Shown: positions 30,597 through 47,951 of the stretch, piece after piece | Layout: each line of letters opens with the position of its first letter | How positions within the stretch are numbered: position 1 is the first letter of the stretch | Virus record (IMG/VR): IMGVR_UViG_3300009011_000019 | Coordinates: 1-50,624 of that record | Length of the DNA: 50,624 nt | Reading direction: 5' to 3' (one strand) | Source: a virus | Notes under the pieces: generated by a model | Seen by the model: the letters and a program-made list of their open reading frames with translations, nothing else | Told to the model about the DNA's origin: nothing | Databases searched by the model: none | Position numbers and translations under genes: made by a program

Positions 30597-30655
30597 GGAA
30601 TTAAATCTCTGCAAAAGATTTTGCCTTTATACAGCATATGCCAATCAACTCATAG

Positions 30656-31515: not shown

Positions 31516-32040
31516 ATGGTAGATATCGTCGATAGCGCAACTCGTAGCCGTATGATGTCAAATATTAAAGGACGGAATACAAAACCAGAATTGCTCATCC
31601 GTAGCCTTCTTCATGCGCAGGGCTTCCGCTTCCGTATCCACCGCAAAGACCTGCCAGGTAAACCTGATATCGTATTACCAAAATACAAGGCTATCATTTT
31701 TATACATGGCTGTTTCTGGCATGGACACCAGAATTGCCGGTTGTTCAAGTTACCGGCAAGCCGTACGGAATTCTGGGAAGCAAAAATCTCCAAGAATCAG
31801 GAAAATGATCTGAAAGCAAAAGAGCTTCTTTTAAATAGCGGCTGGAGAATATGTACCATATGGGAGTGTGCAGTACGTCGTTCTAAAAAAGATCCGGTAG
31901 CACTTATGGATATTCTTACAACATGGTTATCAGGTTCTGAACAATTGCTTGAGATAGATGAACCAATGATTAACAAAAAAAGGGAGATAACTCTCCCTTC
32001 TTCCTGTGAAACCGGACTTTCTTCTACAGATAGCAACTAA
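31516..32040 (+). CDS. vsr: Very short patch repair endonuclease
   Basis: The 174-residue protein nicks next to T:G mismatches that arise when 5-methylcytosine deaminates. Motifs: VDSATRSRMMSNIKGRNTKPE at the start; GKPDIVLPKYKAIIFIHGCFWHGH with the catalytic Asp and the zinc/DNA-binding His residues; and FWEAKISKNQENDLKAKELL. It is about 25 residues longer than the E. coli protein, through a C-terminal tail of low conservation. It ends one base before the convergent 5mC methylase stop, so it repairs lesions caused by that enzyme. Confidence 0.93.
   Translation: MVDIVDSATRSRMMSNIKGRNTKPELLIRSLLHAQGFRFRIHRKDLPGKPDIVLPKYKAIIFIHGCFWHGHQNCRLFKLPASRTEFWEAKISKNQENDLKAKELLLNSGWRICTIWECAVRRSKKDPVALMDILTTWLSGSEQLLEIDEPMINKKREITLPSSCETGLSSTDSN
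31975..31998 (-). terminator. Terminator of the methylase transcript, inside the vsr coding end
   Basis: AGGGAG / CTCCCT with a six-base loop, followed on the minus strand by seven T, lies 43-66 bp downstream of the methylase stop and within the last codons of vsr. Confidence 0.78.
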
Positions 32041-33333
32041 CTAGAATAATTTCAGCTGCTTCTCTGCGACAATTTTTTCAGCCTTATCAAGACAGCTCAC
32101 CATTTGTCCTGCTACAGCTTCAATAACCTTTACACACACAGAATTACCGAACTGCTTATAGATCTGGCCATGTGAAACAGCATCAACTATATAGTTCTCA
32201 GGAAATCCCTGTAAACGTGCACACTCGCGTGGAGTCAGTTTACGCGGATTCTTGCCATGCTCGGCCTGTGAAATAAGAATCTCCGAGCCATCCTTGTAAT
32301 AACGGGCACTTAAGGTATTGGAATATGGACTATCACCGGTGTAAAGCGTATAGCCAAATCCGTTACCCTTGACTCCGTGTTCTTCCTTACGGCGCTGGTG
32401 TCCTTCCCATAGACGGTCGGAAATCGTGTAGACATCTTCACTCTTTTTGAATTTAGATACGTCTTCAAGAATATCACCGAGTCGTGTCTGTGTTTTAGGA
32501 GGCACTGGCCAGCTGAAGAGTTCATCAAAGTTACACTCTTCACCAAAGTAATTCTTATCGAAACCTACAAGGAAAATACGCTCACGGTTCTGTGGTACAC
32601 CAAAATCTGCAGCGCGAAGTACCTTCACATCAACCCAGTAATTCAGTTTTTCTGAAAGTGCCTTTTTGGTTTCATCCGAAAGCTCAACTTCAAGATCAAG
32701 TTCTTCATTAAACTCGCCACGCAGAATCTCAAGAATGGTTTTGAGCGTACGGCCTTTGTCATGCCCCTGCAGCTGCTTCACGTTTTCGAGCAAAAATGCT
32801 TTTGGACGTTTCTCGAAGAGAATTCGCTGTATCTCGAAGAACATGGTACCGCGAGTATCCTGAAAGCCCTGACGCTTACCTGCCTGTGAAAAGGCCTGAC
32901 AAGGGAAACCACCGAGAAGAATGTCATGATCAGGAATATCAACTGCCCTGATCTGTGTGATATCACCTGAAGGTAGTTCACCAAAATTCGCAGCATAGGT
33001 CTTCTGTGCAAACTTGTCCCATTCGGAACTGAATACGCACTTCCCTTTTAATTGCTGGAAAGGTAAACGGATTCCGCCAATACCGGCGAAAAGGTCAATA
33101 AACGTGAATTTATGCTTCTGGTCTGGACGTTCCCTGTATGGAGCTTTATCTGGCAACGCAATAATCTGCTCCCATTTTGCTTTTGTAGGAACATGCTCGC
33201 CACTTTCCCAGCCTCTGACTGTTCTTTCACCATTCTCTTTCATATCAAGCAGCAAAGCGAACTCTTTGAGGGATAACCCCATGTTATTTCTTTTTTGTCT
33301 GATATAAGATGAATCAAGATCAACGTACTTCAC
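32041..33333 (-). CDS. DNA (cytosine-5) methyltransferase with N-terminal HTH
   Basis: The 430-residue enzyme methylates cytosine and should protect host DNA against the neighbouring LlaJI-type nuclease. Residues 8-60 form an XRE-like HTH (IRQKRNNMGLSLKEFALLLDMKENGERTVRGWESGEHVP). The methylase follows with FIDLFAGIGG (motif I, about residue 80), GGFPCQAFSQAGKRQGF (motif IV, catalytic Cys at about 147), FLLENVKQLQGHD (VI), VPQNRERIFLVGF (VIII) and QFGNSVCVKVIEAVA (X). The HTH may repress its own promoter or the divergent restriction operon. Confidence 0.92.
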   Translation of the reverse strand: MKYVDLDSSYIRQKRNNMGLSLKEFALLLDMKENGERTVRGWESGEHVPTKAKWEQIIALPDKAPYRERPDQKHKFTFIDLFAGIGGIRLPFQQLKGKCVFSSEWDKFAQKTYAANFGELPSGDITQIRAVDIPDHDILLGGFPCQAFSQAGKRQGFQDTRGTMFFEIQRILFEKRPKAFLLENVKQLQGHDKGRTLKTILEILRGEFNEELDLEVELSDETKKALSEKLNYWVDVKVLRAADFGVPQNRERIFLVGFDKNYFGEECNFDELFSWPVPPKTQTRLGDILEDVSKFKKSEDVYTISDRLWEGHQRRKEEHGVKGNGFGYTLYTGDSPYSNTLSARYYKDGSEILISQAEHGKNPRKLTPRECARLQGFPENYIVDAVSHGQIYKQFGNSVCVKVIEAVAGQMVSCLDKAEKIVAEKQLKLF

Positions 33334-33348
33334 AATAACTTATCCGCT

Positions 33349-33381
33349 TTTTGACCCGGTTAAATATATCATATGTCAAAA
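33349..33381. promoter_or_regulatory. Candidate operator between methylase and restriction genes
   Basis: Inverted arms TTTTGAC (33349-33355) and GTCAAAA (33375-33381) are separated by 19 bp in the 73-bp divergent gap. The HTH of the methylase is a plausible ligand, but this is inferred from symmetry alone. Confidence 0.4.
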
Positions 33382-33406
33382 GGATGTTCCATATATAGGG
33401 GCTTAT

Positions 33407-35023
33407 ATGTCTAATTTTATTTTAGAGGATTTAGACCAGTTAACTAAGCAATGTAGAATTGATTATAAAAATTTACCAACTAAAATTGATATTCCTATCA
33501 CACCCGAACTGAAAAACCTATTAATTAAAAAATTAGGTAACGGTGTGGAGATTTCAGAATATTCTATTGAATACACAAATGATAAAAATCAGTATGGAAT
33601 ATTTCCTTCTAAATGGTTTTGGGTAGCTTCCGTTTTTTACAAACTGGCGCAGGCTTATGAGCCATATAGTGAGATTCTTGCATACCTAAAAAAAATACCA
33701 GAATTTAATAATGAAGATTTTCTGAAACAATATCCTTTTGAACATGAACCCTCATCTAAAACTCAAGAGCAATTAGATTTTGAAAAAGAAGCTCTTTCAT
33801 TTATAACTTCTAAAGACCCATCAACTGCTAATCAAAATTTTGATTTTTTTAAAAAATTCATTTATGAGCGGTCTTGGTGGAATAAAGGTGAAGTGTCAAC
33901 AAAAAAAGACAAGTCTTCTGGAAAAAATTTCAGTCGATCAAATGGAGACTTATTTAAAAGTACTTTATTAACAGCAACTCAATTTATTGTTGCAACTTCA
34001 GAAAGACTAACCACAATTATTTATGCCGTTGCAGAAGAGCCATTAATTCTTAATAAATTACAGAATATTATTAGTAATATTAATGCATCAAACCAAGTTA
34101 CAGCCAACTCTGGAAAACCAGCAGAAAATATCATTTTCTACGGTGCTCCTGGCACAGGGAAAAGCTTTGCAATTGAAGAAAAAGTCAAAGGGCATATTTC
34201 AATACGTACCGTTTTTCATCCTGAAACTCAGTATAGTGATTTTGTAGGATGCCTAAGACCTTCTATGGATGACAATGGTATTGAGTACAGCTTCAAAAAA
34301 GGTCCTTTTATTGAAGCACTTCTTAAAGCTCTAAAAGACACTGAACATCACTATTATCTAATTATTGAGGAAATCAACCGTGCACCTGCGGCAGCCGTTT
34401 TCGGAGAGCTGTTTCAGTTACTTGATAGAGATAAGACTGGGGAAAGTGAATACCGGATCGATATTAATGACAAGGATCTTCTGAATTTATTAAATAAAGA
34501 ACATCCGGGAGGTTTCCCTGATAATAAACTTTATATCCCAAATAACCTTAGTCTCTACGCGACCATGAACAGTAGTGATCAGGCTGTTATGCCACTTGAT
34601 ACAGCATTTAAACGACGCTGGAAGTTTGAATACATGCCACTTGATTTCTCTACTTCTCCTTCTGGTGTCTTTGATATCATCACAGAAGATGGCTTGCAAA
34701 CTGTAAGCTGGCTAGTATTTGCAAAAACTGTAAACTCAATACTTTCTTTACAGTCAATTCCAGAAGACAGACATCTAGGCCCATGGTTTGTAAATGACAA
34801 TGAGATTAATAGTCCTGAAAATGCGAAAAAGACACTATTAGGAAAGGTTCTTATGTATCTCTGGGATGATGTGCTTCGACATAGCGAGAGATCATCCCTT
34901 TTCCAAGCAGATATTAAAACATTTGGATCACTCGTTACGCAGTTTAATAATGGGCAGATTATTTTTTCAGGAAACTTTAAAGATGAATTAAAAGATCAAA
35001 TTGCCAAAACAAAAAAAGTATAG
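33407..35023 (+). CDS. McrB-like AAA+ NTPase of a LlaJI-type restriction system
   Basis: The 538-residue protein has an unassigned N-terminal domain (1-230) that may read DNA, then an AAA+ domain. The latter shows Walker A GAPGTGKS (about residue 247), the McrB-type FHPETQYSDFVGCLRP, Walker B YYLIIEEINRAPAAAVFGELFQLLDRD, and the sensor/arginine region ATMNSSDQAVMPLDTAFKRRWKF. In LlaJI-type systems such a subunit drives translocation and works with the nuclease encoded next, here 9 bp downstream. It is divergent from the methylase. Confidence 0.88.
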   Translation: MSNFILEDLDQLTKQCRIDYKNLPTKIDIPITPELKNLLIKKLGNGVEISEYSIEYTNDKNQYGIFPSKWFWVASVFYKLAQAYEPYSEILAYLKKIPEFNNEDFLKQYPFEHEPSSKTQEQLDFEKEALSFITSKDPSTANQNFDFFKKFIYERSWWNKGEVSTKKDKSSGKNFSRSNGDLFKSTLLTATQFIVATSERLTTIIYAVAEEPLILNKLQNIISNINASNQVTANSGKPAENIIFYGAPGTGKSFAIEEKVKGHISIRTVFHPETQYSDFVGCLRPSMDDNGIEYSFKKGPFIEALLKALKDTEHHYYLIIEEINRAPAAAVFGELFQLLDRDKTGESEYRIDINDKDLLNLLNKEHPGGFPDNKLYIPNNLSLYATMNSSDQAVMPLDTAFKRRWKFEYMPLDFSTSPSGVFDIITEDGLQTVSWLVFAKTVNSILSLQSIPEDRHLGPWFVNDNEINSPENAKKTLLGKVLMYLWDDVLRHSERSSLFQADIKTFGSLVTQFNNGQIIFSGNFKDELKDQIAKTKKV

Positions 35024-35032
35024 AGAGTAATA

Positions 35033-36289
35033 GTGGAAACTATTTTTAAAAATAATCATTTTTTTCTGGATAGAAGCCCCATCAATGGTTTACCTGCTTC
35101 CGTTGCAGACTTTATTCTGGGACAAGGACTATTGAGCTCCATCAATGGTCTAAGAGTCTCATTTTGCGGTCTTGTCTCCTATCAGGGAGAGAATTACTTC
35201 TTCTTTCCTCGGCAGTCAGATATAGAAAAGATCAAACTTGATTCTGAACAATATACAGCTCTTCTGATGCAGGCACTTTTTAAATTTGCCCAAGATTCAA
35301 AAACACAGGTCACCAGCCCTGAAGATGGAGCGGACGAAACCGGCTTTGAAAAACTCGAGATGTTCAAATACCTGATTAATGATTTCCAGCAACATGGCAT
35401 TTTCAAGAATGAAGAAGTTCTTTTACGGAAGAATTCCGGAAAAACAGACTGGAAAAGAACCATTAACCGGTCGGTTTCTTTCCCAGACAGTTCTGGCCGT
35501 CCTGTTTATCTAGATGTGTACGGGAAACAGAGAACCTCTACCAATTCGGAAATTACACGTATTCATGCCGGAATCCTTAAACAGATATATAAAAACTACG
35601 GGTTTATTTTTACAGGCAAGAACAAGGTCCCTTACTCATTAAAACAGTATGGTGAAACTTCCCTGTCTACTGACGCCCAGATTTCGGTTTTAAAGAATGA
35701 AATCAGGAATCACTTTGCCGATCGCCAGACTCTTCTTCTAAAAACGCTTATTGAGCATCTTGAAGCCTACAAGGGTAATGAGCAGAAGAACCAAATTATT
35801 GGTGTTACACGCTTTCATGTTGCTTGGGAACACATGCTTTCCAAATGCCTTGATAATGTCATTGATATTAATAGCCGGTTACCTAAACCGGTATTTATAA
35901 AGCCGGATGGAACAGCAATACCGGCGAAAAAATCAGGTATGCGAACTGATATCGTGATTGAAGATAAGGCAGCTAATAAACTGACTATTCTGGATGCCAA
36001 ATATTATGAAGCAACCAGTATAGAGAATGCTCCGGGCTGGGCAGATCTCGTCAAACAGTTCTTCTATGAAAAAGCACTTTCAATAATGCCGGAATTCGCA
36101 GGCTATAAATTTGAAAATGCCCTGATCTTTCCAGGGCAAAAAAATGCATTTGATAAGATTCATATGCAAGATCTGAAAAGTGGTCATTATCTGGATACAG
36201 TCTTCCCTGTCATCAAGTGTATTTATCTTGATCCAATGATGATTATTGAAAACTATCATCATAGAAGAAAAATAAAACTATTCATTTAA
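35033..36289 (+). CDS. LlaJI-family restriction endonuclease subunit
   Basis: The 418-residue product resembles the LlaJI nuclease partner (McrC-like). It has an N-terminal beta-rich domain (GLRVSFCGLVSYQGENYFFFPRQSD), a middle helical part, and a C-terminal PD-(D/E)XK block: KKSGMRTDIVIEDKAANKLTILDAKYYEA, with Asp and DAK in nuclease order. It starts at GTG 35033, 9 bp after the NTPase gene, so the two are an operon. It should cleave unmethylated target DNA when activated by the McrB-like motor. Confidence 0.85.
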   Translation: METIFKNNHFFLDRSPINGLPASVADFILGQGLLSSINGLRVSFCGLVSYQGENYFFFPRQSDIEKIKLDSEQYTALLMQALFKFAQDSKTQVTSPEDGADETGFEKLEMFKYLINDFQQHGIFKNEEVLLRKNSGKTDWKRTINRSVSFPDSSGRPVYLDVYGKQRTSTNSEITRIHAGILKQIYKNYGFIFTGKNKVPYSLKQYGETSLSTDAQISVLKNEIRNHFADRQTLLLKTLIEHLEAYKGNEQKNQIIGVTRFHVAWEHMLSKCLDNVIDINSRLPKPVFIKPDGTAIPAKKSGMRTDIVIEDKAANKLTILDAKYYEATSIENAPGWADLVKQFFYEKALSIMPEFAGYKFENALIFPGQKNAFDKIHMQDLKSGHYLDTVFPVIKCIYLDPMMIIENYHHRRKIKLFI

Positions 36290-36293
36290 GTAA

Positions 36294-37190
36294 TTAAACT
36301 CCAATTTTTTTTCCAATATATTTTACTTCTACCGTATTACCTATAAGCTTGTAATGAATTCTCCCAGCAATACCTGTAAAGAAGAAATGTGCTTCATACC
36401 CTTTTAAACCGGCATCATCTAAAGCTTGCTTTCTTTTTTGGTGTTCACCTGCGGCACTCTTTAATGAAAAGGTAATTTCAGATTGTTGATCCCATTTTAA
36501 CAAATCACTATTAACTGTAGCTAAGGTATTATAAATAGAAGTATAGAAACTCCTTAATTCTCTAATATTATCTTTAGCTTCAGCTAGTAGCTTTATTTGG
36601 CTAAGAAAATTATTAGGTGCTTCTAGGAAGTCTTCAAGTAATGGTGGATTTTCAAATGTTGAAAACCAGCCATGATATGTTTCTACATGATGGGGATTAC
36701 AAGCATGACGTATTTCAATATTTTCCTCACCCACATCTTCGTCCTCTATATTGAGTAATAGAGCTTTAATAGTTTCAGTATTCCAATTCAATATTTTTTT
36801 ATCAAATGAAATAACTAGGGAATCAAGCAAATACGACCATATTAATGAGTCATAAGGATGCTGATTATATAAAACCTGCATGCCCCAATAGCTCTCCAAT
36901 TTACTATCACTCCCTAATGAGTAGGGATTTTTTTGTAAATTTACTTTAAAACTTAAAAGTTCTTCTTTTACAGTATTTTTGAGCTGTTTAGAAATGTTCT
37001 GTAAAATTACGGTTTCTGAAATCTTTAATTCAAAAAACTTAGTATTCATATGTATTTGAATATCTGGTCTTATTTTTTTTATAGCCAAAAATGTCTCACT
37101 TAGCTTGCTAATATTACTCGCAAAATGATCTACAATTTCTTCATCACGTAATGATGGGGTATCGTCTAAAAATATAATGTTAGAGTTCAT
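36294..37190 (-). CDS. Third gene of the DUF262/ATPase triad, unknown
   Basis: I do not recognise this 298-residue protein. It is helical in the first 200 residues and contains IEIRHACNPHHVETYHGWF, a Cys/His-rich patch that might bind metal. It ends in a small beta-rich domain (GYEAHFFFTGIAGRIHYKLIGNTVEVKYIGKKIGV). It starts 9 bp after the DUF3696 ATPase and is AT-rich like its partners, so the three probably form an operon. Its place at the end suggests an effector or accessory factor. It is convergent with the LlaJI gene, 4 bp apart. Confidence 0.72.
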   Translation of the reverse strand: MNSNIIFLDDTPSLRDEEIVDHFASNISKLSETFLAIKKIRPDIQIHMNTKFFELKISETVILQNISKQLKNTVKEELLSFKVNLQKNPYSLGSDSKLESYWGMQVLYNQHPYDSLIWSYLLDSLVISFDKKILNWNTETIKALLLNIEDEDVGEENIEIRHACNPHHVETYHGWFSTFENPPLLEDFLEAPNNFLSQIKLLAEAKDNIRELRSFYTSIYNTLATVNSDLLKWDQQSEITFSLKSAAGEHQKRKQALDDAGLKGYEAHFFFTGIAGRIHYKLIGNTVEVKYIGKKIGV

Positions 37191-37199
37191 AATAAAAAT

Positions 37200-38351
37200 T
37201 TAGCTTAATAATTCATCTAAAGCTTTTTCCCACTCATCAAAGAACCCTTCTGGCCAATTCAAAAATCTGCCATTTTCTTGAAGTTGCGGATATATTACTT
37301 GTGTTATCCCTGTTTCATAATCCCGATCAAAATAAAAAACTTCAACATTTTCAGAACTTATTATATTTTTTTTAGTCGCCAACCTAATACCATTTAATAA
37401 ATGATCACTATGAGTTTCTACAAAAATTTGTACTCCATCTTGAGCACACAACGCTAAAAGAATACCCAATTTAAGCTGCCCCCTAGGATGCAAATGAGCT
37501 TCGGGATTTTCTAATAAAAGAATTGACCCTTCTTTAGCAGTCAAACAGCTTGTAATTATAGGTAGAGAATAAGTTAAACCATATCCTACATTAATAGGTC
37601 TTCTATCAGAACTTGTAACTTGTGATTTGGTTTTGTACTTAAAAGCTAATGTAGTTGCATCAATATGATCAATCTTTTCTGCTTTCAACTGGGCGCCTGG
37701 GCTAATTTCTTGTAACCAAGCTGAAATTTGATCTGTTAATTTTAAAGTAGGAGCAATGGTCGTTAGAAAATCCTCAGGAATAGAGGAGTATTCTTTTTTC
37801 ATACAACGCTTTTCAGAAACAATCACATCTTCATTTTGCTGAATATAGTCAATAGTATATTCTCCATTTATCCCTAACCAACCAGTTGCTCTATTAAAAG
37901 TACTTGCTTGTGGGTATGAATTTCTAGGAGAAATTCTATCTGCTTGTATATATTGAAAGTTACTTATATTTTTTTTTAAAACATTGCTATCACCCGAAAC
38001 ATTTCCTTGGATAATATCATTATTTTCAGAATCATTAATATTATAATTTAAAACTATATTACTAGTCTCTTCACTGGTGCTGTAACAACTGGAAATATCA
38101 ATCTTAATATTATTACTTGAAGCTAATTCATACAATATATCATTTGATTTACCTAAAGAAATTAAATTCCCAACTAAAAATAATGTCTTACCGCTTTCAT
38201 TAATATCTAAAGATTGCTTTAAGAGTGCCAAAATTTGTAATACGGAACTCTTACCAGATCCGTTCAATCCTGTTAAAACATTTAACATTTTAAAATTAAA
38301 ATCTTGTTTAACTATAGATTTAAAATTTTCAATTTTTAATTTTTTTATCAT
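37200..38351 (-). CDS. AAA15/DUF3696-type ATPase of the triad
   Basis: The 383-residue protein has an ABC/SMC-like head with Walker A GLNGSGKSS (about residue 25) and a late Walker B SILLLENPEAHLHPRGQ, then VETHSDHLLNGIRLA. The C-terminal FLNWPEGFFDEWEKALDELL is the DUF3696 hallmark. No TOPRIM nuclease domain is attached, unlike OLD proteins, so the effector must be another subunit. The ATG at 38351 lies 5 bp after the DUF262 stop, with GAGTAG as binding site. Likely a sensor ATPase in a defence system. Confidence 0.85.
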   Translation of the reverse strand: MIKKLKIENFKSIVKQDFNFKMLNVLTGLNGSGKSSVLQILALLKQSLDINESGKTLFLVGNLISLGKSNDILYELASSNNIKIDISSCYSTSEETSNIVLNYNINDSENNDIIQGNVSGDSNVLKKNISNFQYIQADRISPRNSYPQASTFNRATGWLGINGEYTIDYIQQNEDVIVSEKRCMKKEYSSIPEDFLTTIAPTLKLTDQISAWLQEISPGAQLKAEKIDHIDATTLAFKYKTKSQVTSSDRRPINVGYGLTYSLPIITSCLTAKEGSILLLENPEAHLHPRGQLKLGILLALCAQDGVQIFVETHSDHLLNGIRLATKKNIISSENVEVFYFDRDYETGITQVIYPQLQENGRFLNWPEGFFDEWEKALDELLS

Positions 38352-38355
38352 AGTA

Positions 38356-39588
38356 CTACTCAGAATATTTTGTAAAAATATTTTCAAATACAGTTTTTCT
38401 TGTAGAATAAGAGCTGTCTGAACCGGTATTGCTACTAAGCGCATCCATGAAACTTCTATTATTTTTCATTTCATTCTCTGTATACTCAATCACAGCCTCT
38501 TTATTAGAAATAAGTTTATTGATTTTTTCATCATTATAAACCCCACTTCCCAATAAATATACTTGAATTTCAAATATTGTTTTATTTATTGGCAATTTTG
38601 ATGATTTACTGCTATCTAATTTTCGAAATGCGTTTTTTCCATAAATAGCTTTGGCATTTTTCATACCTTTAATAAATTTTATTTCTTCCTCTTCCCACCT
38701 CTCACTGGACCATTTTAATATATATTCAACCAATGTGTGGTTCAGAAAGTCATCTAAAATATTTTTATCAAATCGCTTTCCATCTGTAGCAAATAAAGCA
38801 AAAACACGAAGAACCATTTGATGATCCATAAGTCTCTTTTTAGAAACTTTATTTTCTGTATATTCTAAAAATTTATCACTATTGGCGATTTTCGAGACAT
38901 GACCTCGCCAAATACCAGGGTAAATTGCATTACGAATTTCCTGACCATTGACTGGTAATCCACCTTGATTCAAACGTGCAAAAATATTAAACCGTACCAA
39001 ATCTGGCGTACTAGGTCTAATAATTGTAGATGTTATTTCAAGCTCATTGATAGCTCTTTTATAATGTCTTGGTATCTCATTATAGGTTTTACCGTTTAAA
39101 TCTGTTAAGTATTGCATATCAGTTAGTTTTAGATCATCAACTCTAAGATTCAGTGATCTTGAAAGTTCTTTACTATTAATAAACTGAAAAATTGCACTTA
39201 GTCTTTGTAATCCGTCTACTACCGAATAATTTCCTTTATCATCTTCATTAAAATAGAAAGAAGGTAAAGGAATTTTTAATATTACTGATTCAATTAATCT
39301 AGATCTTCTTTTGTTATCCCAGAGGTTACTCGCTCGTTGAAAATCAGGATCTAATTGCAATTCATCATTTTCAAGCCTATCTAATAATTTGGATATCGTC
39401 ATAGGTTTAACAATAATATCGATCTTCGCAGTATCATAAGGTGTTAATCTAGTATTTGACGAAAATTCAGCTATTGTTTTCACAGATTCTTTTTCTTCTT
39501 GCTCAAATTCTTTTTCTTCTTGCAAGGTTTCATCCTCTTGACCATCAGAGCAAAAGAGTTCACTTTGTTCAACCATTGAAGAGACCAC
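38356..39588 (-). CDS. DUF262 (GmrSD N-terminal-like) protein of the triad
   Basis: The 410-residue product opens with an acidic Glu-rich region (residues 10-45). The DUF262 domain follows with LDPDFQRASNLWDNKRRSRLIESVILKIPLP and VVDGLQRLSAIFQFI, matching the PxFQR and DGxQR motifs of this NTP-binding family. The GmrSD C-terminal HNH nuclease domain is absent; instead it ends in helices. DUF262 proteins are frequent in phage defence and sense or cut modified DNA. It is the first gene of the triad. Confidence 0.88.
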   Translation of the reverse strand: MVSSMVEQSELFCSDGQEDETLQEEKEFEQEEKESVKTIAEFSSNTRLTPYDTAKIDIIVKPMTISKLLDRLENDELQLDPDFQRASNLWDNKRRSRLIESVILKIPLPSFYFNEDDKGNYSVVDGLQRLSAIFQFINSKELSRSLNLRVDDLKLTDMQYLTDLNGKTYNEIPRHYKRAINELEITSTIIRPSTPDLVRFNIFARLNQGGLPVNGQEIRNAIYPGIWRGHVSKIANSDKFLEYTENKVSKKRLMDHQMVLRVFALFATDGKRFDKNILDDFLNHTLVEYILKWSSERWEEEEIKFIKGMKNAKAIYGKNAFRKLDSSKSSKLPINKTIFEIQVYLLGSGVYNDEKINKLISNKEAVIEYTENEMKNNRSFMDALSSNTGSDSSYSTRKTVFENIFTKYSE

Positions 39589-40637: not shown

Positions 40638-41575
40638 GCTGCCCCCTGCAATGAGCCTTTGAACCCGACTTGCTTGAGATACGGTTCCCATTGTTTGGCG
40701 TGAGCTGGATCACTGAGTTTTACAGCGATACGTGCTGCGAGTTGATCGTAGCTTTCCCCTGCAGCTGCAAACAGGCTTGCGAACTCAGGATGTTGCGAGA
40801 GTTTTTGAGCGAAGGTGTGAATCTGTTTGTCGCTGAGTTTTTCTTGAGCGCTCGGCGCGCCTCGTACTGACGACCCTGAATTCCGGAAAGATGCCTGTTC
40901 ACGTGCTTGGTATTTGCCACATGCGTTGATTAACCAATCTGCAAAATGGTAATGCATGAGTTCATCACAAAGATTCTTATCAGCGTTGTAGAGTTCAAAT
41001 GCTCGTAACTCACGATCGAACCAAGTTGCGTTTTTGATCTGCTCGTAAGTTTCCTCATCAGTTGCCAAACGAATTTCTTCACCAAGTTTTTTCAAACTCA
41101 ACCATGTTTTTTTATTTTTAGATTCTTCTGATAGATTCCCTGATAGGTTCTGTGTTCCAATATTGGGACTGGTCTCGGTACCGTTTTTGGGACTGGTTGC
41201 GGTCCCACTATTGGGACTAGTATCGTTTTTGGAACCAGTACCGAAATTGGAACTAGTTCCGTTATTGGTACTAGTCCCCTTTTTGGGACTGGTTAAATCA
41301 GCTTCTTCACGGCCCATCACACCAATTAACTGGTACACCTTCACACCATTCCCTGTGATTTCACCTGTAAATCTAATTAAAGAAATTGCTTCAAGTTCAT
41401 CTAATACTTTGATCACTGTTTTACGGTTAAGGACAGTGTCTTTAACCATTCGCTTAATACTTGGGTAACACTTGTGAGATTCTCCCGCTCTATCAGCCAA
41501 GGCCAATAAAACGAGTCTTTGACTTGAGGTTTTCACCTCTGCTTTGAAAGCCCAAATGGTTGCGTCTAAGCTCAT
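40634..41575 (-). CDS. HTH replication protein (O-like)
   Basis: The 313-residue protein has an N-terminal winged-helix domain (residues 1-85, SSQRLVLLALADRAGESHKCYPSIKRMVKDTVLNRKTVIKVLDELEAISLIRF). A low-complexity Thr/Ser/Gly/Asn linker (about 94-141) follows, then a C-terminal helical domain. Phage initiators of lambda O type have the same layout, binding the origin with the first domain and helicase loaders with the second. The linker is encoded by the iteron-like repeat at 41162-41294. The ATG at 41575 overlaps the Dam stop as ATGA. Confidence 0.78.
   Translation of the reverse strand: MSLDATIWAFKAEVKTSSQRLVLLALADRAGESHKCYPSIKRMVKDTVLNRKTVIKVLDELEAISLIRFTGEITGNGVKVYQLIGVMGREEADLTSPKKGTSTNNGTSSNFGTGSKNDTSPNSGTATSPKNGTETSPNIGTQNLSGNLSEESKNKKTWLSLKKLGEEIRLATDEETYEQIKNATWFDRELRAFELYNADKNLCDELMHYHFADWLINACGKYQAREQASFRNSGSSVRGAPSAQEKLSDKQIHTFAQKLSQHPEFASLFAAAGESYDQLAARIAVKLSDPAHAKQWEPYLKQVGFKGSLQGAA
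41162..41294 (-). repeat. Iteron-like array, candidate phage replication origin
   Basis: Seven units of pattern WTTGGGACTRGTNCCGWT are spaced 24, 24, 18, 18, 18 and 18 bp (starts at 41162, 41186, 41210, 41228, 41246, 41264, 41282). The core GGGACTAGTCCC is palindromic in its best copies. The array lies inside the initiator gene, as the lambda iterons lie inside O. Confidence 0.7.
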
Positions 41576-42414
41576 AGGCCAGCTCCAAATAAATCTGTGT
41601 GCTGAGCATTTGGAGAGATCCAAAGGCATTCTGTGCGGACATCTGTGCCTCGTCCTGAAGAAATACGTGAACTAGTATCAACACGCTTCCACTTTGCTAA
41701 GTAGTCTTTATAAATTTCACTCGGGTAACCAGAAACAATCACTTTTCCTTCTAGCTCGAGTAAAACCTTTAAAAGTTCTTCATGGTCTTGATTAGACATT
41801 TCATGACGATAAACACGACCAGTCTTTGCGCCTGAATAACGTGTGTCATGTACATAAGGTGGATCTACATAATGAAGTGTTTCTGAATCATCGTGATCTT
41901 GAAGAACCTGAATGGCTGGGTGATTCTCAATAAGAACTCCAGACAATCTCTGGCCAACGATTGCTAAATGATTTGGATAAGTCACCCACAAAGATTGAGC
42001 TGTGCCATAAGCTCTTTTAGTATCAATCCTGAACCCTGTAATTCCTTTAGAAGCACCTGCAGAACCAAAACCCATTTGTGCACGAATAATTAAACGGCGT
42101 GCTTTTTCAATTGAATCGTCGCAAGGCTCCCATGCTTCTTGAAAGTCATCTCTTGAATAAGGAGTGAAAACAAGTTGTTCGATTAATTTATTTCGATCGA
42201 CTTCATCTCTAAGTACACGAAATAGATTTACAATTTCACTATCTAGATCGTTATAGACTTCTGCGTAAGCACGTGGTTTTTGAAGTAAAACTCCAGCTGC
42301 TCCCCCAAATGCTTCGGTATAACAAGTATGATTTGGGAAATGGCTAATAACCCAACTAGCTAACCGGAACTTTCCACCGTGATAACGAATAAGCGGATGT
42401 TTTAAGCTGCTCAT
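41572..42414 (-). CDS. DNA adenine methyltransferase (Dam/D12 class)
   Basis: The 280-residue enzyme shows the D12-class order. The AdoMet motif is PLIRYHGGKFRLASWVISHFP with TEAFGGAAGVLL, then YNDLDSEIVNLFRVLRD, and the catalytic motif YVDPPYV (about residue 184). It transfers methyl to N6 of adenine, perhaps in GATC or a related site. Targets could be phage DNA for protection from host enzymes or for timing of replication and packaging. It overlaps both neighbours by 4 bp, so it is translated in the early operon. Confidence 0.9.
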   Translation of the reverse strand: MSSLKHPLIRYHGGKFRLASWVISHFPNHTCYTEAFGGAAGVLLQKPRAYAEVYNDLDSEIVNLFRVLRDEVDRNKLIEQLVFTPYSRDDFQEAWEPCDDSIEKARRLIIRAQMGFGSAGASKGITGFRIDTKRAYGTAQSLWVTYPNHLAIVGQRLSGVLIENHPAIQVLQDHDDSETLHYVDPPYVHDTRYSGAKTGRVYRHEMSNQDHEELLKVLLELEGKVIVSGYPSEIYKDYLAKWKRVDTSSRISSGRGTDVRTECLWISPNAQHTDLFGAGL

Positions 42415-43054: not shown

Positions 43055-43309
43055 TTAAGTTCGAGCTACTTCATTACCATTTTGGTTTAATAGATTTGAG
43101 GTGGGATACAACCCGAAATGTTGTAATACTTCTTGCTCTGAAACTTTCCCACCACTGTGTTCTGCTAAAGCTTTACGTAAGTTCTTACGGGGTTCTTTAT
43201 AGCCATACAAAAGATGTGTCTTTAGATAACCACTTGTTGTACCAGTAGCTTTTGCATATTGCTTTAATTCATCTGGAGTCATATTCAGGATGAAATCGCG
43301 AAACTTCAT
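43055..43309 (-). CDS. Cro-like HTH regulator
   Basis: The 84-residue product has MKFRDFILNMTPDELKQYAKATGTTSGYLKTHLLYGYKEPRKNLRKALAEHSGG, a YdaS/Cro-type HTH where residues 18-40 would read DNA. It is the first gene of the leftward early operon, divergent from the CI-like repressor, which is the usual place of Cro. The ATG at 43309 has GAGGATC upstream. Confidence 0.75.
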   Translation of the reverse strand: MKFRDFILNMTPDELKQYAKATGTTSGYLKTHLLYGYKEPRKNLRKALAEHSGGKVSEQEVLQHFGLYPTSNLLNQNGNEVART

Positions 43310-43335
43310 AGATTGATCCTCATTAACCAATCCAA

Positions 43336-43364
43336 ATATTACCTTTTAGGTAATGTAAATACAA
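43336..43364 (-). promoter_or_regulatory. Leftward early promoter with overlapping operator
   Basis: On the minus strand TTGTAT (43364-43359), a 17-bp spacer and TAATAT (43341-43336) make a good sigma70 promoter for the Cro-like operon. The perfect palindrome ATTACCTTTTAGGTAAT (43338-43354) covers the spacer and -10 box, as expected for a repressor operator. Confidence 0.75.
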
Positions 43365-43515: not shown

Positions 43516-44184
43516 ATGGACAGTAAAAGTATTCGCTATCTAAATACACGAATTCTTGTAGAAGAAGTAGGTGGTGTATCTAATTTTGCTGAAAAGATTA
43601 ATAAAGGTCAGTCTCAAACTAGCCAATTTGCTGGTACTAATCCAATTAAAGGTATTGGAAACAAAGTAGCTAGAGAAATTGAAGAGGCATTCAATAAACC
43701 CCATGGCTGGTTAGATCAGGTACATGAAAAAATTGAATCAAGCGACTTTGAAAATAATATTACTTCTCCGTTTCCTATAGCTGGACGTTTAGTTCCTGTT
43801 ATTTCTTGGGTCCAAGCAGGAACATGGACGACTGCAGAGTCCATTCCAATGGGAACACAATTTAAGGAATGGTTACCACCAAATCCTAAATGTGGCAAAA
43901 ATGGTTATGGCTTGATTGTAGTTGGAGAATCTATGTCTCCAGACTTTAGACCTAGTGACAAAATATATGTAAATCCTGACTTTCAAATAAGTGATTTAAA
44001 AACAGGTGATTTGGTTATCGTTGCATGCGACGGGGAAACTGAAGCAACTTTCAAGAAATTGATAGTAGAAAGCAACGGTATGTATTTAGAACCCTTAAAC
44101 CCTAAATGGCATGAAAAAATCATACCACTCCGTGAAGGATGTAAATTAGTTGGAAAGGTCGTTGGGTTATATAGAGATGTATAG
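43516..44184 (+). CDS. CI-like repressor with S24 self-cleaving peptidase
   Basis: The 222-residue protein keeps the prophage silent. Residues 1-70 form an HTH domain; 90-222 form the LexA/CI-type peptidase. The cleavage site is Ala101-Gly102 in SWVQAGTW, the nucleophile Ser139 in VVGESMSPDF, and the general base Lys180 in TEATFKKL. RecA-stimulated cleavage should lead to induction after DNA damage. It is divergent from the Cro-like gene. The long leader (about 108 nt) holds two perfect palindromes. The GHKL ATPase gene starts 26 bp after its stop. Confidence 0.9.
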   Translation: MDSKSIRYLNTRILVEEVGGVSNFAEKINKGQSQTSQFAGTNPIKGIGNKVAREIEEAFNKPHGWLDQVHEKIESSDFENNITSPFPIAGRLVPVISWVQAGTWTTAESIPMGTQFKEWLPPNPKCGKNGYGLIVVGESMSPDFRPSDKIYVNPDFQISDLKTGDLVIVACDGETEATFKKLIVESNGMYLEPLNPKWHEKIIPLREGCKLVGKVVGLYRDV

Positions 44185-44210
44185 TAATTTTATTTTGATG
44201 TGGAAATATA

Positions 44211-46106
44211 ATGACTGATAAAAATTTAGCTGATACTAGGCCTGCCAAAGAGTATTTAGTTAATGGCATGACAAAAGATGTCACGATAGAAGAATGTATA
44301 TTTGACTTAATTGATAATTCTATTGATGCTTACCCACATCATACAGATGAAATAGTTTCTGATTATAAACAATATGCTATCAATCTAAAAATACAGAAAA
44401 ATTTATTTTCTATTAATGATATAGGAAAAGGAATTTGTCTTGAATTATTAAAAACTGATACTTTAAGATTCGGTACAAAGACTAATCATCATACTACTAG
44501 TATTGGTTACTATGGCATAGGATTAAATCGCGCTATTTTCAAACTAGGAAGAAAAATTAATCTTGTTACAGAAACTGAAATTGATAGATCTTCTCTTCAC
44601 TTAGATGTGTCAAAATTTCTAAAAGATAATGACACTTGGTTACTACCTATAAAAACTCAAGCATTGACTAAAAATACCGGAACATTTATCGAAATTAAAA
44701 ATTTAAATAAAGAAGTAAATGATTGTTTTGCAGATAGTGACTGGATATCGGACTTTAAGAATGATATTTCTTTAAGGTATTCAGAATTTATTAATAAAAA
44801 CCTTATAATTACCTTTAATGATGAACCTATAGCTAAAGTAAATACCACGATAAAAACAGTTAGTGATTTCAAACACATCAAAGATGTGTATTATTACAAT
44901 AATATTAAAATCATTATTGAGGCTGGACAAAGCTCTCAACATTCTTTTACTTATGAGAAAAGCTATGATAAAGACAAAAATGCTACTTTGAAAGAATCTG
45001 GGTGGTTTGTGTATTGTAATGACCGAGCTGTTAAGTTATTTGATAAATCTTCAGATACTGGCTGGGATGCAAAACAGCATACGCAACATGCTGGTTTTAT
45101 TGGTAAAGTTTTTTTTATCGGCAATGCTGGAATTTTACCTTGGAATACAAGTAAAACAGATATCGATTTGAATAATGAAATTTATAAAAATGCTTTAGAA
45201 AAGATGCGAACTTTCTTTAAATCTTGGACAAAACATACTTCTAAAGTTAGAAAAAAAGACAAATCTATCACTGAAGAAAATCCATTAGTAAATAACCAAC
45301 AGCAGCTTGATTTAAGTGATCATCAACAGCAATTAGATCAGAATGATCAACAGCAATTAGATCAGAATGATCAGCAGCAATTAGATCAGAATGATCAGCA
45401 GCAATTAGATCAGAATGATCAACAGCAATTAGATCAGAATGATCAACAGCAATTGGTTCAGAATGATCAACAGCAATTGGTTCAGAATGATCAACAGCAA
45501 TTGGTTCAGAATGATCAACAGCAATTGGTTCAGAATGATCAAGAAGAAACTGAAGCTGCATTACCTTCTCACGAGGAATTACTTTATGATATTCCTGAAC
45601 ACGCATTAAATCAAAATCAATTATTTGCTAATGGGCAACACCCTTTTAACATTCCTTCAGATGAGAAAAAATTATGCTCGATAATCAATGAAATGTCTAA
45701 ATTAAAATTAGATCCGAAGAGTGGATCACCTTATGCTGTTCTTTTTCTAATTAGGGCATTTATTGAGTTAAGCTGTAAGCATTATGCTGTTAAACATAGA
45801 GTGAAATTTCAGCTAAATGAAAATAGAATTAATCAGTCTAATGAGAAAACACAAAAATCCTTAGCTGAGCAAGTAAATTTATGCTTGTCTCATATGATTG
45901 CTAACAATGCATTTGATGCTTGTGAAGATACAAGAGATATTGACTCAATAAAAGCTTTATGCAATGAAAATCCAGCACAAAAAACTGTCCGAAGTATACA
46001 ATTTCTACAGAATACTTTACATCATCCAAAAAACATTTGGGATAAAGATAATATTAATGCTTTCTGGCATTCTATATCTCCGTTCCTCATTAAATGTTAT
46101 CAATAA
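44211..46106 (+). CDS. MORC/MutL-like GHKL ATPase linked to a cytosine methylase
   Basis: The 631-residue protein has an N-terminal GHKL ATPase: ECIFDLIDNSIDAYP (N box), INDIGKGI (G1), and TKTNHHTTSIGYYGIGLNRAIFKLG (G2-like). A transducer-like middle domain (180-350) follows. Next comes a low-complexity spacer with nine copies of the octapeptide QQQL(D/V)QND (about 372-443). The C-terminal helical domain contains FLIRAFIELSCKHY and FLQNTLHHPKNIW. MORC-like ATPases are known partners of methylases in bacterial restriction-modification systems; the convergent methylase fits that. No nuclease motif is visible, so the restriction step is unclear. Confidence 0.82.
   Translation: MTDKNLADTRPAKEYLVNGMTKDVTIEECIFDLIDNSIDAYPHHTDEIVSDYKQYAINLKIQKNLFSINDIGKGICLELLKTDTLRFGTKTNHHTTSIGYYGIGLNRAIFKLGRKINLVTETEIDRSSLHLDVSKFLKDNDTWLLPIKTQALTKNTGTFIEIKNLNKEVNDCFADSDWISDFKNDISLRYSEFINKNLIITFNDEPIAKVNTTIKTVSDFKHIKDVYYYNNIKIIIEAGQSSQHSFTYEKSYDKDKNATLKESGWFVYCNDRAVKLFDKSSDTGWDAKQHTQHAGFIGKVFFIGNAGILPWNTSKTDIDLNNEIYKNALEKMRTFFKSWTKHTSKVRKKDKSITEENPLVNNQQQLDLSDHQQQLDQNDQQQLDQNDQQQLDQNDQQQLDQNDQQQLDQNDQQQLVQNDQQQLVQNDQQQLVQNDQQQLVQNDQEETEAALPSHEELLYDIPEHALNQNQLFANGQHPFNIPSDEKKLCSIINEMSKLKLDPKSGSPYAVLFLIRAFIELSCKHYAVKHRVKFQLNENRINQSNEKTQKSLAEQVNLCLSHMIANNAFDACEDTRDIDSIKALCNENPAQKTVRSIQFLQNTLHHPKNIWDKDNINAFWHSISPFLIKCYQ
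45324..45539 (+). repeat. Nine 24-bp tandem repeats in the GHKL ATPase gene
   Basis: Nine uninterrupted 24-bp units encode QQQLDQND (units 1-5) and QQQLVQND (units 6-9). One degenerate unit precedes them. Each unit keeps the reading frame, so copy-number change would alter linker length without breaking the gene. Confidence 0.95.
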
Positions 46107-46107
46107 G

Positions 46108-47229
46108 CTATTTTAAGCTATTAAAAATTGGTATCAAAATAGCTTCAGCCACAATTGGGCTAACACTATTACCTATTTGGCGGAAGCTATGCCATTTTGT
46201 TTCATGAAAAACAAACCAATCTGGGAATCCTTGTAATCGTGCCGCTTCTCTTGGAGTAATTACCCTTGGCTCTAAATAATGAATTGGTCTTACAGCTTGA
46301 TAACTTCCTTTATCACTTCCAGTTCCAGCTCGTAATGTTGGGCAATAACCGTAGGGTTTTAATTTAACTGATTTAGATATTTTATCCTGCTCACCAAATT
46401 CTAATTCTTTATATCGTTTTTCAACTTCAGGTGAATGTCTTGTTCCATGACATCCTGACACTAGGTTTTGTTCCAAATATCTTCCTAAACTCACTGGATC
46501 TCCGACACCCACTGGAATTTGGCCCGCAACTTTTTGAAAGAATTCAGCTATACCGAATTTTTCTTTATCAATTGACTGCCAAGAATCAGATTCTTTTAAC
46601 CATGTTGGTTTAATATCTTGAGGTAAACCCTTAAGCGCTTCTTCTACTGTCACCGCTTTAACTGCTTGTTGATAAAAGTCTTGCTCTTGTAATGGGTTCT
46701 TAATTTTATTTCGATGAAAACCAATGAAAAAAATACGCGTTCTGATTGTTGGTGCGCCATAATCAGAAGCTTTAATTTTCAAAGGTGGGAGTAAATCATA
46801 TTTTTCACTAACAAGTGAAAAAGCAGATTCTCTTATTTCGGCATATTTTTCGTTTAAAATGCCTGTAACATTTTCTGCAACAAAAAAATCAGGTTCTAGT
46901 TCTTTTACAATACGAAAAAAATCATTAAATAAGTTATTCCGAGGGTCTTCTAATTCACGTTTACCCATAGTACTAAAGCCCTGACAAGGAGGGCCACCAA
47001 TAATACCTCTTAAATCCTTTTTTGATATTTTTAATTCTTTTAGAATTTCAACTCCGCTAAGCTCAGAAATATTTTTTTGAATGTGAGATGTCAACGGAAA
47101 ATTTTTAATATGAGTTGAAACGGCATGCTGATCCAACTCAATAGCACCTGCCACATCAAAACCTGCACGAACAGCTCCTAAACTTAAACCACCAGCTCCA
47201 GCAAATAAGTCAATAATTTTTTTTGTCAT
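46108..47229 (-). CDS. DNA (cytosine-5) methyltransferase, second one in the window
   Basis: The 373-residue enzyme has IIDLFAGAGGLSLGAVRAGFDV (motif I), IGGPPCQGFSTMGKRE (motif IV with catalytic Cys), FFVAENVTGIL (VI), APTIRTRIFFIGFHR (VIII), a target-recognition region with RAGTGSDKGSYQAVRP, and QIGNSVSPIVAEAIL (X). Its stop faces the ATPase stop with only one base between, so transcripts collide. It differs clearly from the first methylase and has no HTH. The ATG at 47229 has AGGGGA upstream. Confidence 0.92.
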   Translation of the reverse strand: MTKKIIDLFAGAGGLSLGAVRAGFDVAGAIELDQHAVSTHIKNFPLTSHIQKNISELSGVEILKELKISKKDLRGIIGGPPCQGFSTMGKRELEDPRNNLFNDFFRIVKELEPDFFVAENVTGILNEKYAEIRESAFSLVSEKYDLLPPLKIKASDYGAPTIRTRIFFIGFHRNKIKNPLQEQDFYQQAVKAVTVEEALKGLPQDIKPTWLKESDSWQSIDKEKFGIAEFFQKVAGQIPVGVGDPVSLGRYLEQNLVSGCHGTRHSPEVEKRYKELEFGEQDKISKSVKLKPYGYCPTLRAGTGSDKGSYQAVRPIHYLEPRVITPREAARLQGFPDWFVFHETKWHSFRQIGNSVSPIVAEAILIPIFNSLK

Positions 47230-47334
47230 GTTCTTCCCCTCAAACATATGCATCATACATTTTTTTTCCTTGAATTACGACCGCTCTTTATGTCAACCGT
47301 TTTTTATTTACTCAAAATAAAGGTAATATTAAAC

Positions 47335-47380: not shown

Positions 47381-47414
47381 AAAGCCCCGAAACTTTGGAC
47401 GGAGACGGGGCTTT
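47381..47414 (+). terminator. Leader hairpin just after the rightward promoter
   Basis: Perfect 9-bp arms AAAGCCCCG (47381-47389) and CGGGGCTTT (47406-47414) lie about 12 nt after the expected transcription start. The T run is only three long, so it may be a weak terminator, an attenuator or an antitermination signal. Confidence 0.5.
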
Positions 47415-47433
47415 GCATAACTGCGAGGTAAGT

Positions 47434-47622
47434 ATGAAACAAAACCCTATTCCTAGTCAAACCACATCACGCTTATATCAACACCCTACTATTGAAGAAC
47501 AGCGCCCTTCTCGTTTCGCCACCATTAAAGCGAACGTCATCGACTTCCTAATATTCATTGCCCTTTCATTCGTTCTTTGGGTAATTGCTGTAGCTGCAGC
47601 ATCTTGGATGATGGGAGGCTAA
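47434..47622 (+). CDS. Small single-span membrane protein
   Basis: The 62-residue product has a polar N-terminus (MKQNPIPSQTTSRLYQHPTIEEQRP) and one strong C-terminal membrane span (about 37-58, FLIFIALSFVLWVIAVAAASW). The ATG at 47434 has GAGGTAAGT upstream; the longer frame would start in the leader hairpin. It is the first gene of the rightward operon. Function unknown; early phage membrane peptides often affect host envelope or exclusion. Confidence 0.68.
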   Translation: MKQNPIPSQTTSRLYQHPTIEEQRPSRFATIKANVIDFLIFIALSFVLWVIAVAAASWMMGG

Positions 47623-47624
47623 TC

Positions 47625-47951
47625 ATGAATGCTCAATTCAAACCACATCCAGATGGCATAAAAGCCTATATCGGCCATGATCGCTTAACTGGTCTCTACT
47701 CTGTACGTATCGGCTGGACTATCTATGCAGCTAATGCAAACGGCAGTGTGCTGTACACAGTAAAAGGTGAAGTGAAGACTCCTTTAAATGTTGAAGAGTT
47801 TAAGACGAAGCGCCCTAAGGTGTATGCAACCTTAATGAGTGTGATTAACTTCCAGCGGAAAAAAGCATTAGCAACTGCCCTACAACTTAGCAACATCCCT
47901 TCATATGACCGCAAAGCTTATAAGAAGCGCGGCTTTACTGGTTCAAGATAA
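47625..47951 (+). CDS. Small basic protein, unknown
   Basis: The 108-residue product begins MNAQFKPHPDGIKAYIGHDRLTGLYSVRIGWTIYAANANGSVLYTV, a beta-rich start, and ends in a basic helical part (NFQRKKALATALQLSNIPSYDRKAYKKRGFTG). The charge suggests nucleic-acid binding. It follows the membrane-protein stop by 2 bp with GGGAGG upstream and lies 11 bp before the annealing-protein gene, so it may help recombination. No family identified. Confidence 0.62.
   Translation: MNAQFKPHPDGIKAYIGHDRLTGLYSVRIGWTIYAANANGSVLYTVKGEVKTPLNVEEFKTKRPKVYATLMSVINFQRKKALATALQLSNIPSYDRKAYKKRGFTGSR

What the first reader, a model, noticed from the sequence alone, without database searches (positions are those of the whole stretch)
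44211..47229. MORC-like ATPase and cytosine methylase inside the prophage immunity region
The ATPase starts 26 bp after the CI-like repressor and may share its transcript, so it would be on in the lysogen. The convergent methylase lies between the two repressor-controlled promoters. MORC/MutL-like ATPases in restriction-modification systems are known (Iyer, Abhiman and Aravind 2008), but no nuclease is seen here. Coupling defence to immunity control would make the lysogen resistant only while the prophage is silent.
Basis: partly seen in the sequence, partly recalled or inferred. Interest (0 to 1): 0.8.

Follow-up and report, generated by a model that had tools for sequence, protein, structure and literature searches.

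The report
Defence gene pair in prophage repressor operon
A prophage, probably from Acinetobacter, carries a MORC-like ATPase and a DNA cytosine methylase directly behind its repressor gene, at a spot where related prophages keep many different anti-phage systems, so resistance to other viruses is probably switched on together with dormancy.

Summary
A 631-aa ATPase (44211-46106, +) starts 26 bp after an S24/CI-like repressor. A C5 methylase (46108-47229, -) converges on it with one base between the stop codons. Its N-terminal fold is closest to human MORC4/3/2 and it has the MORC motif. A disordered tandem-repeat linker leads to an all-helical C-terminal domain shared with PD-lambda-5_A. It is not PD-lambda-5: that has a ParB-like N-terminus and a D12 methylase. 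The best operator matches in the window (ATTACCTTTTNGGTAAT) flank the block.

The same layout occurs in A. cumulans with a different operator. The main addition: the place is a cargo slot. In 24 Acinetobacter prophages with a related CI, 20 carry PADLOC-recognised or MORC/C5 genes between cI and the rightward operon (Lamassu, PD-lambda-1, PD-lambda-5, others). Eleven share this operator pair around different cargo.

So it is most likely an R-M-like or abortive cassette transcribed with cI, comparable to lambda rexAB, BstA and Tha; the methylase probably has its own promoter. No expression or defence was shown.

The parts
43055..43330 (-). Cro-like leftward early regulator
   Evidence: phrog_35 transcriptional repressor 6e-8; homologues in the same place in most of L102-L112
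43338..43354 (.). OL-like operator ATTACCTTTTAGGTAAT, inside the spacer of a leftward promoter-like pair (TTGTAT 43364-43359, TAATAT 43341-43336, - strand, read by hand)
   Evidence: only 0-2 mismatch sites in the window are this and 47344; conserved in 11 related prophages and L052
43377..43393 (.). second, weaker OL-like operator 39 bp away
   Evidence: the same spacing in L102-L112
43516..44184 (+). CI-like repressor with S24 peptidase domain (VQAG cleavage-type site, GESM serine and TFKK lysine in the translation)
44185..44210 (+). 26-bp cI-ATPase junction without promoter- or terminator-like site
44211..46106 (+). MORC-like GHKL-S5 ATPase with linker and C-terminal domain (631 aa)
44211..45260 (+). 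GHKL + S5 ATPase module (residues 1-350)
   Evidence: AlphaFold model and Foldseek to MORC4/3/2; MORC motif GWFVYCNDRAV
45322..45542 (+). in-frame 24-bp tandem repeat, 9.2 copies (linker)
   Evidence: different repeat units in L007 (33 bp) and L052 (24 bp)
45651..46103 (+). all-helical C-terminal domain (residues 481-631), shared with PADLOC PD-Lambda-5_A; weak HEPN-like fold hits
46105..46145 (.). 10-bp AT-rich inverted repeat over the convergent gene ends, possibly a weak bidirectional terminator
46108..47229 (-). C5 cytosine DNA methylase; start 47229 by alignment
47252..47257 (-). -10-like element TATGAT of the methylase, within AAAATGTATGAT shared with A. cumulans L007
47344..47360 (.). 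OR-like operator ATTACCTTTTTGGTAAT inside the rightward promoter-like pair (TTGCAA 47335, TAATAT 47357, read by hand)
47395..47951 (+). first genes of the rightward early operon (phrog_29933, phrog_1824), conserved right edge of the slot

Best explanation
The pair is a compact restriction-modification-like (possibly abortive) anti-phage cassette sitting in the cargo slot of a lambda-like immunity region, between the OL-like and OR-like operators. The ATPase, the presumed attacking arm, is transcribed with cI and so is made in the lysogen. The methylase marks resident DNA from its own promoter in the opposite direction. The ATPase is proposed to act as an ATP-gated MORC/MutL-type DNA clamp that tells unmarked from marked DNA and then works through its tethered C-terminal domain or a recruited nuclease. 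When CI is cleaved on induction, the supply of ATPase stops while methylase can still be made, so the excising phage is not attacked. Shown: gene order, operators, domains, conservation, cargo swapping. Inferred: transcription, DNA sensing, effector action, switching.
For: ATPase 26 bp behind cI with no terminator between; same short junction in L007 and L052. Perfect operators flank the block; L007 keeps the layout with a different repressor DNA-binding region and a different operator, CTACTTAAAGTAG, on both sides. Slot test: 20 of 24 related CI loci carry PADLOC-recognised or MORC/C5 genes between cI and the rightward operon; at E<=1e-4, 21 of 30 cargo proteins hit PADLOC against 1 of 10 conserved flanking genes, that one borderline (Fisher p=0.002); 23 of 24 first cargo genes run with cI, median gap 34 bp. 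The pair travels as a unit outside this slot too (L003/L006, L004, L008-L013) and, as a three-gene form, sits in an E. coli EDL933 prophage and in the P2-type slot between replication endonuclease and portal. MORC fold. Precedents: Iyer 2008 PMC2292703, BstA PMC8585504, Tha PMC11087260.
Against: No transcript, methylome or infection data. No catalytic nuclease or RNase motif was found in the C-terminal domain; HEPN hits are not significant (E 0.9-8.5) and the model is weak (pLDDT 60). The N-box catalytic Glu is Asp in the window protein and its compact relatives. The pair is intact without a neighbouring repressor in L003/L006, so coupling is not needed for function. The promoter of the methylase is only a shared pattern in two phages.
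Confidence: 0.62

Rival explanations
1. The ATPase works as the partner of a nuclease encoded elsewhere in the same prophage, the Vsr-like protein at 31516-32040, as MutL works with Vsr or MutH.
For: A Vsr gene sits next to the pair or its three-gene form in L004, L011, L021, L042 and L045; Iyer 2008 reports MORC/C5-methylase/Vsr neighbourhoods; the window encodes a Vsr-like protein.
Against: That Vsr abuts its own C5 methylase and a LlaJI-type system, which explains it without the ATPase; most compact relatives have no neighbouring Vsr.
Confidence: 0.15
2. Nuclease-free restriction: the MORC-like clamp entraps and compacts unmethylated incoming DNA and silences it, as eukaryotic MORCs do to chromatin.
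For: Nearest folds are MORC ATPases, including DNA-bound MORC2; no nuclease domain found in either gene.
Against: The C-terminal domain is shared with PD-lambda-5_A, which has a different N-terminal part, so it may be an effector; no DNA-binding data.
Confidence: 0.2
3. The methylase is an orphan regulatory or anti-restriction methylase and the ATPase a separate gene; their adjacency is only cargo stacking.
For: Phages often carry C5 methylases (562 phage records match); the two genes are on opposite strands.
Against: The ATPase-methylase pairing recurs across several bacterial classes and in several genetic layouts.
Confidence: 0.1
4. The pair mainly protects the prophage itself (addiction or resistance to loss), like selfish R-M modules, rather than excluding other phages.
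For: A methylase plus a methyl-sensing killer would act so, by general knowledge of R-M systems.
Against: Other cargo of the slot includes relatives of tested anti-phage systems.
Confidence: 0.15

Closest known systems
MORC/paraMORC-containing R-M loci (Iyer, Abhiman and Aravind 2008)
   Same: GHKL-S5 ATPase with the MORC motif beside a C5 methylase, sometimes Vsr, on mobile DNA
   Different: no helicase and no nuclease gene beside it; C-terminal domain shared with PD-lambda-5_A; sits in a repressor operon
PD-lambda-5 (Vassallo 2022; tested defence system of E. coli)
   Same: methylase plus a protein with the same C-terminal domain; prophage-borne; called a compacted R-M+Abi system
   Different: its A protein has a ParB-like N-terminus and its B protein is a D12 adenine methylase; here a MORC ATPase and a C5 methylase
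Lambda rexAB, BstA of BTP1, RexABpp of P. putida
   Same: defence genes behind the repressor gene, inside the immunity region, probably on the repressor transcript
   Different: unrelated proteins; no methylase; BstA has a DNA self-immunity element, here methylation could play that part
Tha/Ith of S. aureus phage 80alpha (Rostol 2024)
   Same: defence gene on the cI transcript with a gene on the opposite strand; off in the lytic cycle
   Different: the antisense gene there is an inhibitor; here it is a methylase and the reading frames do not overlap
Three-gene GHKL + Methyltransf_35 + C5 methylase modules (E. coli EDL933, EC77; PfAC20)
   Same: related MORC-motif ATPase and methylase; convergent layout in both E. 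coli loci
   Different: a separate O-methyltransferase-like protein (PF20553) instead of the fused C-terminal domain; not directly behind a repressor
P2/P4 defence hotspots (Rousset 2022)
   Same: a fixed prophage position with swapped defence cargo
   Different: P2 slots lie elsewhere in the phage genome; here the slot is in the repressor operon between operators

Membership tests
MORC family (sensu Iyer 2008) | GHKL plus S5 fold | tested here: met
   AlphaFold/Foldseek: MORC4, Morc3, MORC2 top hits; HATPase_c_3
MORC family (sensu Iyer 2008) | GhXhhpXXRhl motif in S5 | tested here: met
   GWFVYCNDRAV at residue 264; one scan seed overlapped this motif, so recovery of relatives is biased, but not the window itself
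MORC family (sensu Iyer 2008) | intact GHKL catalytic motifs (N-box Glu, G boxes, S5 Lys) | tested here: inconclusive
   N-box is DLIDNSID (Asp for Glu), S5 LPWNTSK present
PD-lambda-5 | A protein with the PD-Lambda-5_A C-terminal domain | tested here: met
   PDLC04014 1.7e-9 over residues 485-630; relatives to 1.5e-14
PD-lambda-5 | ParB-like N-terminal part of A | tested here: not met
   window N-terminus is GHKL and unmatched by the profile; the PD-lambda-5_A homologue L067 is ParB_N-like, itself a weak Pfam match of 0.028
PD-lambda-5 | D12-type methylase B | tested here: not met
   window methylase is C5; L067 partner is MethyltransfD12
C5 cytosine DNA methylase | PPCQ, ENV, RxR, REAARLQGFP, GNS motifs | tested here: met
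   present in the window and in all four aligned relatives
Type II R-M system | cognate restriction endonuclease | tested here: not met
   no nuclease family in either gene; Vsr and LlaJI R2 lie 8-13 kb away beside another C5 methylase
paraMORC3/Shedu with GHKL | C-terminal PD-(D/E)xK nuclease domain | tested here: not met
   C-terminal domain all-helical, no Pfam nuclease match
rexAB-type lysogeny-operon defence | directly behind cI, between OL and OR | tested here: met
rexAB-type lysogeny-operon defence | expression with cI in the lysogen | not testable with these tools
   needs RNA-seq
rexAB-type lysogeny-operon defence | homology to RexA/RexB | tested here: not met
   only GHKL and C5-methylase families found
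DISARM | drmA/drmB helicase genes in the locus | tested here: not met
   absent between the operators; related GHKL genes do sit in DISARM-like operons elsewhere

The most novel reading that the evidence does not exclude
A nuclease-free restriction system: a MORC clamp that silences unmethylated DNA by entrapment, placed under the repressor so that methylation-based immunity is a function of lysogeny, and housed in a repressor-operon slot that Acinetobacter phages use as an exchangeable defence dock.
Probability: 0.17. Interest if true: 0.85.

Novelty: new variant of a known kind. Interest (0 to 1): 0.6.

Why it matters
If right, one defined DNA interval, from cI to the right operator, is a docking site for defence in a family of Acinetobacter prophages. 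New systems can then be found by reading what lies there: four loci hold genes that PADLOC does not know. It also offers a tractable test of what bacterial MORC ATPases do, an open question since 2008, because the predicted controls (methylase on/off, lysogen on/off) are built into the locus.

Tried and rejected
PD-lambda-5 membership, suggested by PADLOC, was rejected after reading a PD-lambda-5 pair in L067. A single-sequence search of viral contigs with the ATPase and of the PDB found nothing; profiles of A3 and A4 against the PDB gave nothing useful. Direct control of the methylase by CI was considered and judged unlikely because its -10-like element lies clear of the operator. HEPN identity of the C-terminal domain was left open. 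McrC (PF10117) was tested for 35033-36289 and not found; RE_LlaJI fits instead. The sigma-70 scan finds no more promoters than shuffles (17 against 19.6), so it is used only for the empty 26-bp junction. The Acinetobacter hotspot paper PMC11723918 was not held, so whether it already describes this slot could not be checked. Two paper searches returned nothing.

Full report
What is there. The window is an IMG/VR virus record. Its repressor and ATPase have their nearest relatives in Acinetobacter prophages, so the host is probably Acinetobacter, by inference. The right-hand early region reads: Cro-like gene 43055-43330 (-), S24/CI-like repressor 43516-44184 (+), ATPase 44211-46106 (+), C5 methylase 46108-47229 (-), rightward operon from 47395 (+) with a Sak-type annealing protein, then an excisionase-like gene and integrase. 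The coordinates of the finding are right to the base.

The ATPase. Pfam sees HATPase_c_3. An AlphaFold model built on 12 relatives gives a mostly confident GHKL+S5 module (residues 1-350), a disordered linker and an all-helical C-terminal domain. The best PDB folds are human MORC4, mouse Morc3 and human MORC2 with DNA. The family motif of Iyer et al. (PMC2292703) reads GWFVYCNDRAV. The N-box residue usually Glu is Asp in the window protein and the compact relatives. The linker is a 24-bp tandem repeat of 9.2 copies. Two close relatives have tandem repeats of different sequence in the same place, 33 bp x 5.1 in L007 and 24 bp x 11 in L052, where the contig ends inside the array, so the tether seems to vary in length while staying in frame. 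The C-terminal domain matches PADLOC PD-Lambda-5_A (1.5e-14 for relative L003). Its fold search brings up several HEPN or HEPN-like proteins (1jog, 1o3u, 8xeh, 4nqf), but with no significant E-value. R515, E519 and H604 are invariant in 12 relatives.

Not PD-lambda-5. In a PD-lambda-5_A homologue found in an Acinetobacter genome (L067) the N-terminal part is ParB-like and the partner is a D12 adenine methylase. The window has a MORC module and a C5 methylase instead. The C-terminal domain is the shared, movable piece.

Relatives of the pair. Scans of genome and viral contigs show three settings: (1) a compact form, C5 methylase plus a 560-630-aa ATPase with C-terminal domain, mostly in proteobacteria; a Vsr nuclease lies beside it in L004 and L011. 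(2) A split form, a ~470-aa ATPase, a ~330-aa Methyltransf_35 protein and a C5 methylase, sometimes with Vsr. This form is in E. coli EDL933 and in the P2 slot between replication endonuclease and portal of E. coli EC77, both times with the methylase convergent, and in filamentous phage PfAC20. (3) ATPase plus Methyltransf_35 gene inside operons that I read as DISARM-like from their sequences. Iyer et al. already described MORC ATPases with C5 methylases and Vsr, so the pairing itself is known.

The immunity region. ATTACCTTTT[A/T]GGTAAT occurs with 0-2 mismatches only at 43338 and 47344 in the whole window. Both lie between hexamers that I read as the leftward and rightward early promoters. 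In A. cumulans (L007) the repressor's DNA-binding region and the operator differ (CTACTTAAAGTAG, two sites, at 6210 and 10269; 0.03 matches expected), yet cI, ATPase and methylase stand in the same order with the same short junction. No terminator- or promoter-like site lies in the 26 bp between cI and the ATPase. Upstream of the methylase, AAAATGTATGAT is shared by the window and L007. It gives a short leader with a GAGGGG ribosome site and lies about 85 bp from the operator, so I infer that the methylase has its own promoter, free of direct CI control.

The slot. I collected 40 CI-centred regions from Acinetobacter genomes. In the 24 with the closest repressors (L102-L125), the genes between cI and the conserved rightward operon differ from prophage to prophage: Lamassu in L102, L106 and L125, with LmuB-like genes in L104, L105 and L108; PD-lambda-1 in L109 and L117; PD-lambda-5 in L119; an AAA ATPase plus D12/PD-lambda-5_B-type methylase in L116 and L118; an OLD/HEC-04-like ATPase with a convergent C5 methylase in L107; a ParB-like gene with a convergent C5 methylase in L113 and L120; a type II methylase in L114; Hp1-Hp2-Hp3 genes in L115 and L122; an RmrA-like gene in L124; PDC-M68B in L111; and a second, co-directional MORC+C5 pair in L123. 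L103, L110, L112 and L121 have no PADLOC match among the proteins searched. That makes 20 of 24; some were assigned through homology to a searched member, and L123 through my own MORC and C5 profiles. Of 30 cargo proteins searched, 21 hit PADLOC at 1e-4 against 1 of 10 conserved neighbours, borderline (Fisher p=0.002). The sample was chosen by me and several AAA hits are generic, so the p value is indicative only. The first cargo gene runs with cI in 23 of 24, median gap 34 bp. In the 11 loci with the window's repressor type (L102-L112), the operator stands on both sides of cI plus cargo. A tree of the ATPase domain puts L123 apart from the window/L007/L052 clade, with well-supported branches forcing at least two label changes for the slot; L123 is a long branch, so its exact place is unsure.

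How it most likely works. The best analogy is lambda cI-rexA-rexB and BstA, defence genes behind the repressor (PMC8585504), and Tha of 80alpha, which is on with cI and off in the lytic cycle (PMC11087260). Here self/non-self would be told by methylation: the methylase marks resident DNA and the ATPase senses unmarked DNA. What it does then is not known. I rate an effector in the C-terminal domain, entrapment as by eukaryotic MORCs, and recruitment of a nuclease as open alternatives in that order.

The rest of the prophage. A second defence block lies at 31516-36289: a Vsr-like protein, a C5 methylase with an N-terminal regulatory-looking stretch, an McrB-like GTPase (PDB McrB 3e-15, AAA_5 7e-13) and an RE_LlaJI nuclease (2e-41). 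LlaJI-type systems restrict unmethylated DNA (PMC1459862). So 'no nuclease' is true of the pair only.

Limits. No expression, methylation or infection data exist here. PADLOC and Pfam call families, not activities. The Commun Biol 2025 survey of Acinetobacter defence hotspots was not held, so novelty of the slot is provisional; the BstA paper already notes that the cI-n interval of lambdoid phages is a hotspot of mosaic diversity.

Noticed in passing
window 31516-36289: A second restriction block: Vsr-like nuclease (31516-32040), C5 methylase with N-terminal HTH-like stretch (32041-33333, -), McrB-like GTPase (33407-35023) and RE_LlaJI nuclease (35033-36289), a LlaJI-type system.
   Followed up: partly
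window 36294-38444 and 29364-30614: An ABC/AAA-type ATPase (37200-38444, -) with a neighbour (36294-37190, -), and a 416-aa protein with a nuclease-like VIIELKR stretch (29364-30614, -): possible further defence genes, judged by eye from the translation.
   Followed up: no
window 41572-42414: A Dam-like (D12-type) adenine methylase by eye, so the prophage probably has three DNA methylases.
   Followed up: no
L103:5921-7679 and L109 (first two cargo genes): A homologous pair of unknown genes (297/288 and 299/298 aa) in the cI slot of two prophages, no PADLOC or Pfam match: candidate new defence system.
   Followed up: partly
L110:2381-4826, L112:2333-4478, L121:2354-3121: Further unknown cargo of the slot: an NA37-like gene plus a 421-aa gene; three unknown genes; a DUF3800 gene.
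   Followed up: partly
L017-L050: DISARM-like operons often carry a MORC-motif ATPase plus a Methyltransf_35-type gene between their large genes.
   Followed up: partly
L059:5785-9294: A C5 methylase, O-methyltransferase-like and MORC-like ATPase module in the P2 slot between replication endonuclease and portal of E. coli EC77; the main text of Rousset 2022 does not use these terms.
   Followed up: partly
window 45322-45542; L007 8140-8308; L052 8111-8373: The same linker holds different in-frame minisatellites in three related ATPases.
   Followed up: partly
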